Positions 37,461 through 50,202 of a stretch of 64,000 nt of DNA are shown piece after piece (position 1 is the first letter of the stretch; each line of letters begins with the position of its first letter). The notes under the pieces are model-generated. The model did no database searches and was not told the origin of the DNA. It saw only the letters and a program-made list of their open reading frames with translations. Position numbers and translations under genes: made by a program. Source of the DNA: Acidobacteriota bacterium (GTDB lineage: Bacteria > Acidobacteriota > Terriglobia > Acidiferrales > UBA7541); the NCBI GenBank assembly GCA_003224085.1, contig QHYK01000041.1:1-64000 (forward strand). The letters run 5' to 3'.

Positions 37461-39734
37461 CTAACCTGGAAGGTGTGAGCTGACTGATTCCGAAGCCGGA
37501 GTTCGCTTCGTCTTGCCGGAGCCGGAGGAATAGTAGTAATGACCATAGTAACCGTAGTATCCGTTATGACGCACGTCTACCTTATTGAGGACCAATCCTA
37601 GAATTCTTGCTCCTGCATTCTCCAAGACCCTGCGAGCGCGCGCCACTGCTCCTCTGGCGGTTACCCCACTTTCGACGACAAAAGCAACACCATCCACGAA
37701 CGTTGAAAGGATCATCGCATCGGTCACGGGAAGCACGGGTGGCGAATCGATCACCAGGAACTTGAACCGCTGACGCAATTCTTTCAGTAAGGACTCCATG
37801 GCAGACGAGGAAAGCAATTGTGCTGGGTTGGGAGGCTTGGGACCGGCGGGGAGTACCCAAAGCGTAGGTACAGGAGAAAACTGTCTTAGTGCCGCCTCAA
37901 TGCTGTGGGCTCCCGTCAGGTAGCCAGCGAGACCTTCTCCATCAACGAGATCTAGCGACTCGGCGATCCCTGGCCTTCGAAGATCGGCATCTATGATCAG
38001 AGTGCTGTCTCCTCTTTGAGCGAGTGCAATCGCCAAGTTGAGAGCGGTCGTGCTTTTCCCCTCTCTAGCCGTAGCGCTGGTTATCAATAACGCCTGCGGA
38101 GGCCGTGGCGCCGTCGAGAGTACTACAGAAGTGAGGAGGGTTCTAAAGGATTCTGCGAGCGCTGACGACGGCTCCTTTAAGAGCGCCAACTCTGCACCGC
38201 TCGACTTTGAGTTGCCGTTGTTTCGGGTGAGTGATCGAGCTGGCCGGTGAGGGAGTTCGCGCTCGAGCGGAACAACCGCCAAGGCGGGAGCGTTCACAAC
38301 TCTCTCTGCCTCTTCGATGCTCTTGATCGAACTGTCCAAGGCTTCCTTTACAAAAGCGAGCGTCACCCCGAGGATCAGCCCGACAACTAGGCTTACGGCG
38401 ATATTAAAAAGTTTTTGAGGTCGGACAGGCACCTTGGGAGGCCGAGCCAGGTCAACCACATGAATGTTGGTTGCGCGAAGACCGGCTGAAACCGTTGCAT
38501 CCTTGAGCCGCTGAAGCAGGCTGTCATAGAGTTGTTGATTCGTATCAAACTCACGCTTCAGGAGATTGTGTTGGATCAGGAGCTGGCTCAGTGCTCCGAC
38601 CCCGACCTTTTCTTTGGCAACTGCCGCAGCTAGGAGCTTTTCCCGGCCGAGCGCTGCCTCGTAATCATTCCTCAACCTTTCGACCACTCGCTTCCGTTCT
38701 GTGTCAATGAGAGATTGAATTTCGTCGACTTGGCTCCGTAACCTCTCCACTTTAGGATGTTTTGGCCCGTATTGCTCCAAGGCGTCAACGTATTGCGCTT
38801 TCAGATCGGCAAACTTTTCTTCTAGCCGCTGCAAGATCTCGTTTTGAGCAACGAAAGCCACTTGCGATTCATTCGATCGCACTAGTTCATAGAGCGACTC
38901 CTTTTGGACCCGATCGCCTTCGGCGTTGGTCAAGTCTCGGCTAAGGTCAGCCAGTCGCTGCTCAACGACACTCTCTTTGTCGCTGATATTGACGATTAAG
39001 TTTTGCCTCTCGTAATCGACCAGTGCCTGCTGGGACTTTTCAACCTTGGCTTTTAATTCATCAAGCTGCTGTTCCAACCATCCGGATGCTTGGCGAGTCG
39101 CATCGTACTTCTGCCGAAAATTGTATTCGATGTAGTTGTTTGCCAGCGAGTTCGCAATTTTGGCTGAAAGGCCGGGATCCGGACTCTCGAAACTAATGTT
39201 CACTACGTGGCTGTCCCGGACTCGCTGAACGTGTAGACGGCGCTTGAACGGTCCGAGGAGCCTATCCTCCCATACCTGAAGTTGTACTGGAGGCACGTCG
39301 TTGCCCAGCCCGACGGCCAACGCCCAGGCCGGATCTCTTGCCAGCCCTAGCTGCTCGATTGTCCGCTGCGCCAGGTTATCACTCTCGAGGACTTGGATTT
39401 GGGTGCCGATGAATGCATCGTCCGTCGGAACCTGCCGATAAAGGTCGTTGAGGGATTGGATTTGCGGTGTATCTGCCTCTATATCCAGATGAGCCGTGGC
39501 TTCATAAATCGACACCATCTTAAAAGAGGCGATGGCGACCAGCAGCGTCACAATAAAGGCGACGGTCACGATCGTCCATCGGCGCTTATTAATGATGTTC
39601 CAATAAGTTTGCAGATAGCTGAAGCTCTCGAACTCTTGTACATCGGTCCCAAGAACAGGGAAAGCAGGCAAGTGCGGCGATTCCGGCACCGGCAGCCTTG
39701 GCCCGCGTAGCGACAGCGCTTGGTTGTCAGGCAT
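37461..39734 (-). CDS. Wzc-like polysaccharide co-polymerase with BY-kinase domain
   Basis: An inner-membrane protein of about 757 residues controlling EPS chain length and export. The N-terminal Wzz domain has a first membrane helix near residues 55-75 (TIVTVAFIVTLLVAIASF). A long periplasmic coiled coil follows (about 190-400) and a second helix near 440-460 (LFNIAVSLVVGLILGVTLAF). The cytoplasmic tyrosine kinase has Walker A TSATAREGKSTTALNLA, Walker A' TLIIDADLRRPG and Walker B FLVIDSPPVLP. The C-terminus carries the autophosphorylated tyrosine cluster (YYGYYGHYYYSSG). CpsB (5947-6696) should be its phosphatase and the Wza-like protein its outer-membrane partner. ATG 39734 is used; a TTG start at 39755 adds seven residues. 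Confidence 0.93.
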   Translation of the reverse strand: MPDNQALSLRGPRLPVPESPHLPAFPVLGTDVQEFESFSYLQTYWNIINKRRWTIVTVAFIVTLLVAIASFKMVSIYEATAHLDIEADTPQIQSLNDLYRQVPTDDAFIGTQIQVLESDNLAQRTIEQLGLARDPAWALAVGLGNDVPPVQLQVWEDRLLGPFKRRLHVQRVRDSHVVNISFESPDPGLSAKIANSLANNYIEYNFRQKYDATRQASGWLEQQLDELKAKVEKSQQALVDYERQNLIVNISDKESVVEQRLADLSRDLTNAEGDRVQKESLYELVRSNESQVAFVAQNEILQRLEEKFADLKAQYVDALEQYGPKHPKVERLRSQVDEIQSLIDTERKRVVERLRNDYEAALGREKLLAAAVAKEKVGVGALSQLLIQHNLLKREFDTNQQLYDSLLQRLKDATVSAGLRATNIHVVDLARPPKVPVRPQKLFNIAVSLVVGLILGVTLAFVKEALDSSIKSIEEAERVVNAPALAVVPLERELPHRPARSLTRNNGNSKSSGAELALLKEPSSALAESFRTLLTSVVLSTAPRPPQALLITSATAREGKSTTALNLAIALAQRGDSTLIIDADLRRPGIAESLDLVDGEGLAGYLTGAHSIEAALRQFSPVPTLWVLPAGPKPPNPAQLLSSSAMESLLKELRQRFKFLVIDSPPVLPVTDAMILSTFVDGVAFVVESGVTARGAVARARRVLENAGARILGLVLNKVDVRHNGYYGYYGHYYYSSGSGKTKRTPASESVSSHLPG

Positions 39735-39792
39735 GTCCTTCACTTTATGAGGCAAGAATCGGCAACGAGAGTCTGCGGTGCCTCACTCATCT

Positions 39793-40884
39793 TCAGCGAC
39801 GCCAGATGATGAGGCCGGTGGTGATGTAGACTGCAGAATCGACAGCGCGGCGTAGGGCCTTCGTCCCTGAGCTATCTGGAACAAAGAGAATATCGCTGGC
39901 TTGCATGCGGGGGTCGGGGGCTCGACCTGTCAATACGTTCTTCAAATTCACGGCAATCTCTTCTCGTTCATTCTTCTCTTGTGGATTTTTCCGGATGATC
40001 ACCGCTTTGGATTTTTGGGCTGTGGATTTCGTGTCCTCCGCAAGCGCAAGTGCCTTCAGGACAGTCATTTCCTCTTCGCTGCTCCGTAATGGGAATCCTC
40101 CTGGACGATTTACGGCCCCGACGACATAAACGACTCCGGCGCGCTGAACGGTGACCCGGTCGCCCGGATAGAGCTCCACGTTCGAGGCCGGTTCTCCGGT
40201 CTCCATAAGCCGCTTGAGGTCGATTGTGACTTTTTCTGTACAAGCAACATCACTGTTGGGACTATTGGAGGGAGTGCATACTCCGGATTGGTTGAGGGCC
40301 TGAATCGCGACTTCGCCACGGGTTACGAGCGCCATATTACTCGCGTCATCCGAAAGGCCGCCCGCCTGCGACAAAACATCCAACACTGTCGTTTTTCCGA
40401 ATAATGGGTAGATCTGGGGGCTTTTCACGGCCCCGGCTACGGTAATAGAATGGATACGAGATTGTTTGACCGCCACGGTCACGCGAGCATTACTAAAGAT
40501 TTCTTCCTCACCGTATTTCTTGACTAGGAGTCTAGAGAGCTGAGCGGGTGTCAGCCCAGCGGCTTCCACAGCCTCGGCGAGCAACGGTAACTCAAGCTGG
40601 CCAGCTGGCCCGACGCGGTACTCGCCCGAAATATCCGGGGCGTCATAAACGTTGATGCTGAGCACGTCGTCCGGACTAATAATGTACTCCGGGAGCGTGA
40701 GCGAGGTGGCAAATTTCGAGGGCGAACCGGATCCCGGTAAGGTTTTTGAGCTAGAGCTAGTCGTTGAATAGGTTTGGGCAGCCAGGGACGAACAGGAAAC
40801 GGACACCAGCAGACAGGCGGCGACAAGGCTGCTCCCACGGAGCGTCCTCAGGGGGGCACACATTACGCCAGTAGAAACCATCAT
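39793..40884 (-). CDS. Polysaccharide export protein (Wza-like, SLBB domains)
   Basis: A 363-residue exported protein. An N-terminal signal region (LRGSSLVAACLLVSVSCSSLA) is followed by the polysaccharide export sequence domain YIISPDDVLSINVYDAPDIS, GPAGQLELPLLAEAVEAAG and RVTVAVKQSRIHSITVAGAV. SLBB-type folds come next (VYVVGAVNRPGGFPL). The Cys at about residue 31 could be a lipidation site as in Wza, but the surrounding residues are not a clean lipobox. It should form the outer-membrane exit channel, docking onto the Wzc protein encoded next. The start at 40884 has GAGGAG seven bases upstream. A TTGACG-like box lies near 40960 on this strand in the 223-base gap before it. Confidence 0.9.
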   Translation of the reverse strand: MMVSTGVMCAPLRTLRGSSLVAACLLVSVSCSSLAAQTYSTTSSSSKTLPGSGSPSKFATSLTLPEYIISPDDVLSINVYDAPDISGEYRVGPAGQLELPLLAEAVEAAGLTPAQLSRLLVKKYGEEEIFSNARVTVAVKQSRIHSITVAGAVKSPQIYPLFGKTTVLDVLSQAGGLSDDASNMALVTRGEVAIQALNQSGVCTPSNSPNSDVACTEKVTIDLKRLMETGEPASNVELYPGDRVTVQRAGVVYVVGAVNRPGGFPLRSSEEEMTVLKALALAEDTKSTAQKSKAVIIRKNPQEKNEREEIAVNLKNVLTGRAPDPRMQASDILFVPDSSGTKALRRAVDSAVYITTGLIIWRR

Positions 40885-45486: not shown

Positions 45487-46095
45487 TCAATTTCTTAAGC
45501 TAGGCGGGCCTTGGTAATTCGTGAATTTCGTGCTAAAGCGAGCCATCTTTGAGGCCGCGTAGTTCATTCGCTCAATTACAAAGGCATCAATTTCGACAGA
45601 AGCTGCCTTCCCAAGGATCTCGACGGAGAGGACCAGCCGATAAAGATTTTTCTTCCGCACCAGAATACCCTCGATTCCCTGCAAAGGACCGTATTTGACT
45701 CTTACCCATTCGCCGCATTTCAAGAGCGGATGTGGCTCGACGCAGGCACCACTTTCAACAGCCCGTCGAACGCCTTCGATCTCAGAGTGCGGAATCGCGG
45801 CTGGCTGGCCTGCGGTTGAGACGAGGGCACGTATGCCTGGTGTCGTCAGGATGTCCAGGCGACGCTCAAGGCCTCCTTTGAGGAAGACATAGCAAGGAAA
45901 CAGTGGCAAAGAAAGAAGCTTTGTGCGGTCCTTCCAACGGTGCGCAGCGGAATAGAGCGGGAGAAGGGTCTCAAATCCCTTGCTCGTGAGAATCCCTGCC
46001 ACGGTCTTTTCGTGTTGGTGCCGAGTATAAATCGCGTACCAACCGACGGCGTGGTCGGAAGGACGAACTTCTGACGCCGCTGCCATGGAAAGCAT
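45487..46095 (-). CDS. NusG/UpxY-type specialised transcription antiterminator
   Basis: A 202-residue NusG paralogue. The NGN domain (about residues 17-115) shows GWYAIYTRHQHEKTVAGILT, FETLLPLYSAAHRWKDRTKL and PLFPCYVFLKGGLERRLDIL. A KOW-like domain follows (about 135-180; GEWVRVKYGPLQGIEGILVR). The RW/W and PLFPxYVF patterns are those of UpxY/LoaP/RfaH-type paralogues, which load onto RNA polymerase near the start of long surface-polysaccharide operons and suppress premature termination. As the first gene of a minus-strand EPS locus of about 42 kb, its role is very likely cis antitermination. No ops/JUMPstart-like element could be recognised in the 250-base leader. Confidence 0.87.
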   Translation of the reverse strand: MLSMAAASEVRPSDHAVGWYAIYTRHQHEKTVAGILTSKGFETLLPLYSAAHRWKDRTKLLSLPLFPCYVFLKGGLERRLDILTTPGIRALVSTAGQPAAIPHSEIEGVRRAVESGACVEPHPLLKCGEWVRVKYGPLQGIEGILVRKKNLYRLVLSVEILGKAASVEIDAFVIERMNYAASKMARFSTKFTNYQGPPSLRN

Positions 46096-46343: not shown

Positions 46344-46691
46344 TCACAGATCATTGCCGCCTTCACCTAAATTCAATCCTTCGAGAACAACCGCGAAACC
46401 TTCGTTCCCGACATCACTACTTGCATGCTCGACGCGAATCACGGTGGCTTCTGTTTTCAGCCGCAGGCTGCGCGTCCCGCCATGGAGGGGAAAAAGTAAA
46501 ACGTCGAGCTGGATTGTGGCTCCCACCGGTGGACACGTCAGACTGAATAGAAATGCTCCCCCCACACTGAGATCCCGAGTTACTCCTTCTCCATGCAACC
46601 AACCGCCCTCGGCGCTTCGCCATGTGAACACCGCCTCCGCTGCGAGTCGATGACGAACTCGGCTTCTCAGTTCAGTTTGCACCGCAAACAT
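46344..46691 (-). CDS. PilZ domain protein, probable cyclic-di-GMP sensor
   Basis: A 115-residue single-domain protein. The two c-di-GMP-binding elements are present: the arginine motif in ELRSRVRHRLAAEA (R-x-x-x-R) and DLSVGGAFLF ((D/N)xSxxG). Beta-barrel strands follow (LDVLLFPLHGGTRSLRLKTE, ATVIRVEHASSDVGNEGFAV). Such stand-alone PilZ proteins pass the c-di-GMP signal to EPS synthesis or to transcription. It is transcribed in the same direction as the EPS locus, 250 bases upstream of the antiterminator gene. It could be the first gene of the transcript or a separate unit. Confidence 0.88.
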   Translation of the reverse strand: MFAVQTELRSRVRHRLAAEAVFTWRSAEGGWLHGEGVTRDLSVGGAFLFSLTCPPVGATIQLDVLLFPLHGGTRSLRLKTEATVIRVEHASSDVGNEGFAVVLEGLNLGEGGNDL

Positions 46692-47251: not shown

Positions 47252-48010
47252 GTGGAAACTTGTATGGATACTGTCCGCCAGCAAGGATCCTACCGAGTGC
47301 GTGTTTGCATCGCCGACGCCACCCGTATGAGCGCCCAACTGATTGCGGTGGCGTTGAAGCGGTACCACAAGAAGTTGGACATCTGCGCATTTGCAGGGAA
47401 CTCTTCCGAAGTATTTTCCGAACTAAGAACGTCTAGACCTGACATTGCCGTGATCAGCGCCCAACTGGAAGATGGCCGACTCGCTGGTTTCAAGGTCGTG
47501 GATCAGCTGCTCGCCTCGAACTCGAAAATCCGTTCAGTAATGTTGCTGGATTCCGATGAACGGGACCTCGTCGTCGATGCGTTTCGTGCCGGGGCGAGAG
47601 GTGTCTTCTGCCGGGGTAGCTCCTTCAATGCCCTCCCGAAATGTATCCGCCGCGTTTATGAAGGCCAAATTTGGATTAGTAATGCCGAACTAGAGTTTCT
47701 CCTTGGGGCAATCGTCAATCTGAGACGATTTCATATCCACAAAGGAAACGGAAACGTTTCCTTCACACCGCGCGAACGGGACGTCATCCGCCTCGTAGCG
47801 GAGGGGATGAGGAACCAAGAGATTGGCGTGGCGCTCAGCCTCCGCGAGCATACGGTTAGAAACTACATTTTTCGGGTTTTTGAGAAGTTGGGCCTATCGA
47901 GCCGGGTCGAGCTGGTTCTGTACGCGCTCAAGGCAGAACAATCTTTCGGCGACCAATCGTCTCGCGATGCAGCCGAGAGAACGGCTCCGGACATAGCTGT
48001 GGCTAGATGA
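47252..48010 (+). CDS. LuxR-type (NarL/FixJ-like) regulator with a degenerate receiver domain
   Basis: A 252-residue regulator. Residues about 14-130 fold like a receiver (RVRVCIADATRMSAQLIAVA, MLLDSDERDLVVDAFRAGAR). The C-terminal LuxR domain, about 170-235, has FTPRERDVIRLVAEGMRNQE, IGVALSLREHTVRNYIFRVF and EKLGLSSRVELVLYAL. In the receiver, the phosphoacceptor Asp after beta-3 is replaced: DIAVIS stands where DVVLLD is expected. The conserved Lys near the end is Arg (GVFCRG), and only one Asp of the acidic pair remains (ADA). Phosphorylation by a histidine kinase is therefore unlikely, and none is nearby. The GTG at 47252 or ATG 47264 may be the start. Its stop overlaps the start of the ATPase-amidase gene (ATGA). 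Confidence 0.86.
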   Translation: METCMDTVRQQGSYRVRVCIADATRMSAQLIAVALKRYHKKLDICAFAGNSSEVFSELRTSRPDIAVISAQLEDGRLAGFKVVDQLLASNSKIRSVMLLDSDERDLVVDAFRAGARGVFCRGSSFNALPKCIRRVYEGQIWISNAELEFLLGAIVNLRRFHIHKGNGNVSFTPRERDVIRLVAEGMRNQEIGVALSLREHTVRNYIFRVFEKLGLSSRVELVLYALKAEQSFGDQSSRDAAERTAPDIAVAR

Positions 48011-50202
48011 ACCTAGGGCGCATGCGAATCCAAGGCGACACATCTATGTTCCTGGAATTCTACGGGTTGAAAGAGCAGCCGTTCGGCGTCACGCCAGACC
48101 CGCGCTTCCTCTGCCCTAGCAAAACCCACTGCAGAGCGTACAACTCCTTGTCGCGTGGCCTCGAAGCCGGATGCGGCTTATTAGCTCTTGTTGCGAAGCC
48201 AGGCATGGGCAAGACCACGTTGGTGTTCCAGCTTTTAAAGCGGCTAAGTCAGACGTCTCGTCCGATCTTTCTATTCCACACGCAGTGTAATTCACATTGG
48301 TTCTTGCGCCACATACTTCGCTGCTTGGGAACGGACACGACAGGGCTAGATGCCGTTGGCATGCTCGGGAGACTGAACCAGCTTATCGTGCGTGAGCGGC
48401 TGGCTGGCCGGCAGCTTGTCCTGATCATTGATGAATGTCAGAACCTTGACAGCTCCGTGCTCGAAACGGTCCGGCTTCTATCCGACTTCGAAACACCGGA
48501 GACGAAGCTCATACAAATCGTTCTTGTAGGCCAGACCCAGTTGGCGGCGAACTTGTCAAGCCCATGCCTGGCGTCGCTTAGACAGCGCATATCAATCCTG
48601 TGCCGGTTGGAACCGCTTACGCGGGAAGAAATCGTTCGGTACATCGAACACCGGCTTCGGATAGCGGGTTATCGGGGAGCACCGCTGTTTACCGACGGAG
48701 CTCTGGAATGGATTTTGGTGCGCAGTGAAGGTATTCCTCGGAACATTAACAACCTGTGCCTCAATGCCCTGCTTGCTGGATACCAAGCAGGGCGCAAACA
48801 AATCGATTTCGATATTGTGGACAAAGTTCTGGACGACCTGGATGAGAACCCGCCGAAGCGGAAGATCGACCCGCAGCGGACACCAATCATTCTTGATTCA
48901 GGCATGTTCAGGGCCAATCGGGATAGCACGCAAGTCAGCTCCCAAGACATAGACGAGATTGTGATTGAGTTTGCCGAATCTCCGCCAGATCCGGTGCCGC
49001 AACTCGGTCACACGCAAGCACCACAGAAGGCGCAATCTGACCCTTACACCGCGAAGGGTAACATTTCGGGGCAAAAACAACTCGCTTCCAATGTAGCGGG
49101 TCATAACGCCGCTCACTCTGACACGAGCTCCCTTTCCCAGAAAACGTCCCAGTCAGTTCCTTTGCAAACTCCTGCACCGCAGCGCGCGGCCGTGATTTCT
49201 CATCCGGAGGTATCCAGTGCCCGCTGGCGCAGCAAGACCGTTGGCGCTTTGACTCTCGGTGCAGCGCTTACGGGTCTTTTACTCTTTTCTTTCAGAGGTG
49301 GGTTGCGCCGAGAATTTCAAGTCTCGCGTGGAGCAGTAGGGGCACCTGTTGGAGCGCCTCTACCGAGCCCACCGGTTTCGAGCGCCCTAGCCGCCGGCTC
49401 AACACCCGTTACCAGCCCTCTTGCGACGGATGTGTCACCTACACGGCCCTCCCTGACGCGCGCACCCGAAGGAAAGATCGTACGCATCGTGATTGATCCG
49501 GGTCACGGCGGCCGGGACACAGGCACTACTGGACCCGCGGGCTTAAAGGAGAAGGATCTTTGCATGGACATCGCGTTGCGGCTCGGGCGGATTATAAAGC
49601 AGCGGCTCCCCGGCGTAGAAGTCATATTCACACGAACGAATGATACGTTTATCCCTCTCGAAGAGCGCACCTATATCGCCAACGATATAAAGGCTGACCT
49701 CTTCTTGTCGATTCATGCGAACTCAAGCCCCTATCCCGCAGCCCGAGGCATCGAGACTTATTACTTGGACTTGGCAGAAAGCACGGAGGTGATGGAACTC
49801 GCCGCCCGCGAGAACGCAACCGCTCAAGGACCGGACAGGCTCGAGCGGATGAAGAAGACCGGGCTCGGAGAAAAAATCGAGGAATCAAGAATGCTTGCCG
49901 AAGACCTTCAAGAGTCTCTCAACCGGTTCGTCCAGCGCTCCGTGAGTGGGCTCGAGAGCCGTCGCGTGCGCCGCGCGCCCTTTGTGGTGTTAGCCGGAGC
50001 GAATATGCCTTCCGTGCTCACCGAAATCGCTTTTCCAAGCAATCCATCGGACGAGCAGCTCTTGAGGAAAGGCGAGTACTGTGAGCGTCTGGCCGAGGGC
50101 CTCTTTCAAGGTCTAGCAAACTATCTCCAGAGCCCCAACGGCGTCAAGCATAACCCACCGACGACAACGAAACCGGTTGTCGTACCTTCGGCTGCGTCGT
50201 GA
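48007..50202 (+). CDS. Fusion protein: ExeA-like AAA ATPase, membrane segment, N-acetylmuramoyl-L-alanine amidase (Amidase_3)
   Basis: A 731-residue chain with two enzyme domains. Residues about 14-285 are an ExeA/GspA-type ATPase: FLEFYGLKEQPFGVTPDPRF, Walker A VAKPGMGKTTLVF, Walker B VLIIDECQNLDS, and GIPRNINNLCLNALLAG. A Ser/Gln/Pro-rich linker leads to one membrane helix near 408-428 (GALTLGAALTGLLLFSF). Residues about 490-725 are an Amidase_3 zinc amidase with all ligands: VIDPGHGGRDTG (His), LKEKDLCMD (Glu), LSIHANSSP (His) and the catalytic Glu in VLTEIAFPSNPSDE. The ATPase would face the cytoplasm and the amidase the periplasm. ExeA couples ATP use to peptidoglycan opening for secretins. 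The first ATG overlaps the LuxR stop; ATG 48046 is the family-like start. Confidence 0.88.
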   Translation: MNLGRMRIQGDTSMFLEFYGLKEQPFGVTPDPRFLCPSKTHCRAYNSLSRGLEAGCGLLALVAKPGMGKTTLVFQLLKRLSQTSRPIFLFHTQCNSHWFLRHILRCLGTDTTGLDAVGMLGRLNQLIVRERLAGRQLVLIIDECQNLDSSVLETVRLLSDFETPETKLIQIVLVGQTQLAANLSSPCLASLRQRISILCRLEPLTREEIVRYIEHRLRIAGYRGAPLFTDGALEWILVRSEGIPRNINNLCLNALLAGYQAGRKQIDFDIVDKVLDDLDENPPKRKIDPQRTPIILDSGMFRANRDSTQVSSQDIDEIVIEFAESPPDPVPQLGHTQAPQKAQSDPYTAKGNISGQKQLASNVAGHNAAHSDTSSLSQKTSQSVPLQTPAPQRAAVISHPEVSSARWRSKTVGALTLGAALTGLLLFSFRGGLRREFQVSRGAVGAPVGAPLPSPPVSSALAAGSTPVTSPLATDVSPTRPSLTRAPEGKIVRIVIDPGHGGRDTGTTGPAGLKEKDLCMDIALRLGRIIKQRLPGVEVIFTRTNDTFIPLEERTYIANDIKADLFLSIHANSSPYPAARGIETYYLDLAESTEVMELAARENATAQGPDRLERMKKTGLGEKIEESRMLAEDLQESLNRFVQRSVSGLESRRVRRAPFVVLAGANMPSVLTEIAFPSNPSDEQLLRKGEYCERLAEGLFQGLANYLQSPNGVKHNPPTTTKPVVVPSAAS

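What the first reader, a model, noticed from the sequence alone, without database searches (positions are those of the whole stretch)
48007..50202. One polypeptide joining a cytoplasmic ExeA-like ATPase to a periplasmic peptidoglycan amidase
Walker A/B and all Amidase_3 ligands are present on either side of a single membrane helix. Normally an ExeA/GspA ATPase works with a separate peptidoglycan-binding partner, and amidases are controlled by EnvC-like activators. A fusion could transmit ATP-driven movement directly to wall opening, for example to insert the EPS exporter or another secretion conduit. The FYGLxxxPFxxxPDP start also resembles the PEP-CTERM-locus ATPases, yet no exosortase is visible.
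Basis: partly seen in the sequence, partly recalled or inferred. Interest (0 to 1): 0.6.

Follow-up and report, generated by a model that had tools for sequence, protein, structure and literature searches.

The report
ATPase-tethered cell-wall amidase, fused twice
A soil bacterium makes one protein that joins an internal ATP-using domain, through the membrane, to an external cell-wall-cutting enzyme, and related bacteria appear to have built the same joint twice, which suggests that holding the cutter on this particular ATPase is useful.

Summary
The finding is real. Window 48007-50202 (+) is one intact 731-codon ORF: ExeA/TIGR03015-like ATPase, long low-complexity linker, one membrane helix (411-429), second linker, Amidase_3 with all four catalytic-site residues. 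It is no sequencing join: 14 unbroken fused genes were read from separate Acidobacteria genomes.

Two fusion clades exist. Clade A (window, five others) is ATPase-TM-Amidase_3; clade B (eight) is ATPase-TM-AMIN-Amidase_3. The amidase tree puts A with the housekeeping amidase of the window's own genus and B with that of other genera; one origin is rejected (AU p 0.0014; 0.0026 without long branches). The ATPase tree alone does not reject one origin (p 0.10). The same ATPase elsewhere carries LysM-like, PEGA or TonB_C ends, LysM-like ones inside EPS loci.

Most likely: an ExeA-type assembly ATPase whose wall-binding end was replaced by a wall-cutting end, so ATPase-dependent clustering or recruitment sets where the amidase works. 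EPS linkage holds for clade A only. No assay exists; ATP control of cutting is untested.

The parts
48007..50202 (+). fusion gene, 731 aa as the longest ORF; likelier start ATG 48046 (718 aa)
   Evidence: MFLEFYGL start shared with relatives
48046..48846 (+). cytoplasmic AAA_22/ExeA-like ATPase domain, residues 14-280; Walker A 63-70, Walker B ending D142 E143
   Evidence: (TIGR03015 14-280, 236 bits)
48847..49236 (+). low-complexity linker before the membrane, residues 281-410
   Evidence: low-confidence coil in the model
49237..49293 (+). single membrane helix, residues 411-429
   Evidence: hydropathy
49294..49470 (+). periplasmic linker, residues 430-488; no AMIN domain in clade A
49471..50142 (+). 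Amidase_3 catalytic domain, residues 489-712 (H500, E515, H570, E673)
49771..49932 (+). AmiA/B/C-type helical insert, about residues 589-642
   Evidence: helices 103-117, 124-131, 133-156 of the domain model; present in AmiA, absent in 5emi and in phage L087
47252..48010 (+). LuxR/NarL-type regulator directly upstream (ATGA overlap with the 48007 start); receiver has Ser69 at the position of the phosphorylated Asp
   Evidence: Asp position assigned by recalled NarL motif
46344..46691 (-). PilZ-domain protein, part of the conserved neighbourhood
45487..46095 (-). UpxY-family antiterminator, head of the EPS gene block
   Evidence: (108.9 bits, cut-off 100)
39793..40884 (-). Wza-type polysaccharide export protein
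37461..39755 (-). Wzz-Wzc fused chain-length/tyrosine-kinase protein

Best explanation
It is an inner-membrane, ATPase-tethered peptidoglycan amidase. Shown by sequence: an ExeA/TIGR03015-like ATPase module with one membrane helix, whose periplasmic end, LysM-like (presumably wall-binding) in relatives, is replaced by an AmiC-like Amidase_3 domain with its catalytic residues; this most probably happened twice, from duplicated housekeeping amidases. Inferred: the ATPase domains self-associate with ATP or a partner, as ExeA does, gathering several amidase domains at one place at the inner membrane; local concentration, and perhaps release of the AmiA/B/C-type inhibitory insert, opens the wall there. 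In clade A, which sits beside a Wzx/Wzy-type EPS locus that has no other such ATPase, the place is probably where the polysaccharide export complex crosses the wall.
For: Single intact ORF with both domains over cut-off. Fusions in 13 of 89 family genomes plus one of another family, 14 genes read in full. Both domains conserved, linkers much less. Same ATPase-TM module with LysM-like, PEGA and TonB_C ends, LysM-like members between Wzz and Wzc-like genes. Clade B's membrane region is homologous to LysM-like ATPases L059 and L066 (1.2e-6, 2.6e-5), so an end swap after the helix is visible. Amidase tree: A with genus g1 housekeeping amidases 99/99, B with others 99/98, one clade rejected p 0.0014, 0.0026 without six long rows. 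The window holds no second ATPase of this type. ExeA: ATPase, one TM, peptidoglycan-binding, multimers of up to 12 (PMC4098917, passages).
Against: No assay; neither ATPase nor amidase activity is shown. The ATPase tree alone does not reject one fusion origin (p 0.101), and gene conversion of the amidase part by the housekeeping copy could imitate two origins. Clade B loci show no EPS block, and A member L023 lacks the UpxY/PilZ/LuxR block, so EPS export cannot be the shared role. Membrane orientation is not decided by charge. Self-association is by analogy only; L024 has Ser where the other nine aligned fusions have Arg194.
Confidence: 0.55

Rival explanations
1. Direct mechanical or allosteric gating: ATP hydrolysis in the cytoplasm pulls or twists the membrane helix and so unblocks the amidase, an FtsEX-EnvC-AmiB pathway in one chain.
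For: The amidase keeps an AmiA/B/C-type insert; FtsEX-EnvC is precedent for a cytoplasmic ATPase controlling such amidases (PMC7668044 and PMC11139282, passages).
Against: Linkers on both sides of the helix are long, low-complexity, variable in length and fast-evolving.
Confidence: 0.2
2. The ATPase domain is only a recruitment handle for an envelope machine, and the amidase is always active or is switched by a separate LytM-type activator.
For: Own genome has four Peptidase_M23 matches, so activators are possible; clade B keeps AMIN, a second targeting domain.
Against: Walker motifs kept in all 14 fusions suggest nucleotide use.
Confidence: 0.2
3. A second-hand wall binder: the amidase domain anchors rather than cuts.
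For: It takes the place of LysM-like ends.
Against: All four catalytic-site residues invariant in 10 of 10 aligned fusions and amidase dN/dS 0.16-0.31.
Confidence: 0.05

Closest known systems
ExeA/GspA of type II secretion
   Same: cytoplasmic AAA-type ATPase, single TM, periplasmic peptidoglycan-interacting end in one chain; needed to assemble an outer-membrane secretin (PMC4098917, passages)
   Different: ExeA's end binds peptidoglycan; here it is a predicted amidase; no T2SSB match in own genome, though that search's control rang nowhere
TIGR03015 XrtA/PEP-CTERM-associated ATPase
   Same: best NCBIfam match of the ATPase, full length of the model, EPS neighbourhood
   Different: 236 bits against a cut-off of 324.5; no exosortase; carries a TM and an amidase
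ATPase-TM-LysM-like proteins of Acidobacteria (L034, L036, L041, L059, L066)
   Same: nearest ATPases, same layout; the likely parent type
   Different: LysM-like end instead of amidase
AmiA/AmiB/AmiC (Amidase_3)
   Same: domain fold (AmiA 8c2o_A Z 27.7, rmsd 2.4, 201 aligned; AmiC 4bin Z 27.4, rmsd 1.8, 191 aligned) and helical insert
   Different: secreted, with separate activators; not fused to an ATPase
FtsEX-EnvC-AmiA/B
   Same: cytoplasmic ATPase governing a periplasmic amidase (PMC7668044, passages)
   Different: ABC-type ATPase and several polypeptides

Membership tests
Amidase_3 (PF01520) | score over the curated cut-off | tested here: met
   155.8 bits, cut-off 27
Amidase_3 (PF01520) | catalytic-site His/Glu/His/Glu | tested here: met
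   H500, E515, H570, E673 invariant, 10 of 10; role recalled
Amidase_3 (PF01520) | amide-bond cleavage in peptidoglycan | not testable with these tools
   needs an assay
AmiA/B/C subgroup | helical regulatory insert before the last catalytic strand | tested here: inconclusive
   insert present and helical, partly at pLDDT 56-57; occlusion of the site not examined
TIGR03015 XrtA/PEP-CTERM ATPase | score over the curated cut-off | tested here: not met
   236 of 324.5 bits
TIGR03015 XrtA/PEP-CTERM ATPase | exosortase in the genome | tested here: not met
   PF09721 0 matches in a 97% complete genome; control rang in 1 of 14
ExeA/GspA | ATPase plus single TM in one chain | tested here: met
ExeA/GspA | own peptidoglycan-binding domain | tested here: not met
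   no such Pfam match in P0001
ExeA/GspA | GspB partner | tested here: inconclusive
   PF16537 0 matches, but control rang in none

The most novel reading that the evidence does not exclude
A single-chain, ATP-gated wall cutter: an ExeA-type ATPase that normally escorts an exporter through peptidoglycan has, twice, acquired its own amidase, so that exporter or envelope-complex assembly and wall opening are coupled within one molecule and switched by nucleotide state.
Probability: 0.25. Interest if true: 0.78.

Novelty: new variant of a known kind. Interest (0 to 1): 0.58.

Why it matters
How wide envelope machines get through the peptidoglycan net, and how cells keep amidases from lysing them, are open questions usually spread over many interacting proteins. 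A natural single-chain fusion, apparently arisen twice, says which two activities benefit from being joined and gives a compact test: one protein, one Walker mutation, one amidase assay.

Tried and rejected
Sequencing join: rejected, intact single ORFs in 14 separate genes. Chance ORF: rejected by domain scores and dN/dS. Exosortase link: none found. One fusion origin: rejected on the amidase tree, not on the ATPase tree. Fusions outside the class: none seen in 396 phylum genomes at E <= 1e-90, but only two candidates per genome were scored; none among 231 matching plasmid records reached 80% coverage. Other phyla could not be searched by profile (searches did not accept the centre given). Full-length AlphaFold2 with five rows failed (mean pLDDT 37.1) and is not used except to note absence of predicted structure in the linkers. 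Literature: ten searches listed no such ATPase-amidase fusion by title or abstract start; for most papers only that listing was seen, and one search listed 12 of 121, so this does not show that none is in print.

Full report
The window's 48007-50202 (+) is one open frame of 731 codons with AAA_22 at residues 55-180 and Amidase_3 at 494-704, both over Pfam's cut-off. The ATPase part matches TIGR03015 over its full length, but at 236 bits against a cut-off of 324.5. Between them lies one hydrophobic segment, 411-429. The start at 48007 overlaps the upstream regulator's stop (ATGA), but relatives begin at MFLEFYGL, residue 14, so 48046 is the likelier start.

It is not an artefact. The window's genome is an Acidobacteria MAG, judged by its relatives' titles. 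Among 89 genomes of its family, 13 hold a profile match at E <= 1e-150 and all 13 prove to hold a fusion in one frame: nine in the window's genus (36 genomes) and four in two sister genera. One more, L024/G365, belongs to another family. That is 14 of 399 genomes of the class draw, where only two candidates per genome were scored and not all matches were listed. A draw of 396 genomes of the phylum gave only the window itself. Against five clade A relatives, dN/dS is 0.18-0.63 in the ATPase, 0.16-0.31 in the amidase and 0.62-0.67 in linker plus helix; the ATPase's 0.63 is from L021, whose divergence is too small to weigh.

Two kinds of fusion exist. Clade A (window, L021, L022, L023, L024, L033) has no AMIN domain; clade B (L029-L032, L047-L049, L051) has it in the six members scanned: four of the ten members of A1, and L048 and L051; L047 and L049 were not scanned but look alike by eye. 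In the ATPase tree of 43 rows each clade is 100/100, and B lies among LysM-like ATPases (98/88 with L059 and L066). In the amidase tree of 50 rows A falls with the genus g1 housekeeping amidases (99/99) and B with housekeeping amidases of other genera (99/98); a single fusion clade is rejected (p 0.0014), also after removing six long rows (p 0.0026). Holding all fusions together on the ATPase tree is not rejected (p 0.101). The housekeeping enzyme of the own genome, L040, is TPR-AMIN-Amidase_3, and clade A member L023 shares its C-terminal tail beyond the Pfam domain. I read this as two independent captures of the housekeeping amidase; conversion of the amidase part in a single older fusion is the alternative. 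Clade B is found in genera g1, g25 and g26 while its amidase groups with g26-type enzymes, so transfer between genera is likely.

The ATPase is a general carrier. It is found with a LysM-like end (L034 20.4 bits, just under the cut-off of 20.9; others by eye), PEGA (L057), TonB_C (L062) and Sel1 repeats (L052). LysM-like members sit between a Wzz gene and a Wzc-like gene, with an UpxY/NusG-type gene nearby. Clade B's membrane region is still recognisably that of the LysM-like L059 and L066.

Neighbourhood. In 5 of 6 clade A loci (window, L021, L022, L024, L033) the block UpxY, PilZ, LuxR-type regulator, fusion is kept; L023 lacks it. Only the window and L024 reach well into EPS genes. The window's EPS locus has Wza, Wzz-Wzc, Wzy and flippase-like genes and no other ATPase of this type. 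The regulator has Ser69 where a receiver has its phosphorylated Asp, invariant in five of five (position by recalled motif), so it is probably not switched by phosphorylation. Clade B loci share no gene with the window by BLASTP apart from the fusion and, in L032, two genes unrelated to EPS (one search covered L029-L032; L047-L049 and L051 were seen only as ORF lists).

Structure. The amidase domain modelled with 56 rows has mean pLDDT 87.2 and matches AmiA, AmiC, AmiB and short Amidase_3 enzymes (Z 26-30). The AmiA/B/C-type insert is there as helices, one of them at low confidence. Whether it covers the site was not examined. E. coli amidases of this type are described as autoinhibited and freed by LytM activators under FtsEX (PMC11139282, PMC7668044; passages).

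Mechanism. ExeA, with ATPase, one TM and a peptidoglycan-binding end, multimerises with ExeB on peptidoglycan and lets the secretin assemble (PMC4098917, passages). The fusion has the same plan with a cutting end. Since 109-192 low-complexity residues of variable length part the ATPase from the helix in clade A, I favour clustering or recruitment over a lever. Shown: architecture, conservation, separate amidase sources. Inferred: topology, self-association, ATP dependence, EPS role in clade A. Not shown: any activity.

Noticed in passing
window 47252-48010: NarL-type regulator with Ser in place of the receiver's phospho-Asp, conserved in five of five relatives: a likely phosphorylation-independent regulator of the fusion or EPS locus.
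   Followed up: partly
L052:1973-3901 (G077:C126): Clade A-type ATPase whose amidase start is broken off after its first motif and followed by Sel1 repeats to the contig end: another end swap, or an assembly join.
   Followed up: no
L025/L064, L037:7575-9462, L044:7225-8027: Broken or contig-cut copies of the ATPase or amidase part (63-71% identity to the window): the fusion seems to be an accessory gene that decays.
   Followed up: partly
L024 (G365): Clade A fusion with a collinear EPS neighbourhood (mostly 75-88% protein identity) in a genome of another family: island transfer or a MAG binning error.
   Followed up: no
L062:6893-8788; L057; L061; L063: The same ATPase fused to a TonB C-terminal domain or to PEGA-type repeats, i.e. 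a general ATPase-TM carrier for envelope modules in Acidobacteria.
   Followed up: partly
L054, L055, L060: ORFs with about 290-370 residues before the ATPase (perhaps only over-long ORF starts) and a short cysteine-containing end without an obvious membrane helix; function unknown.
   Followed up: no
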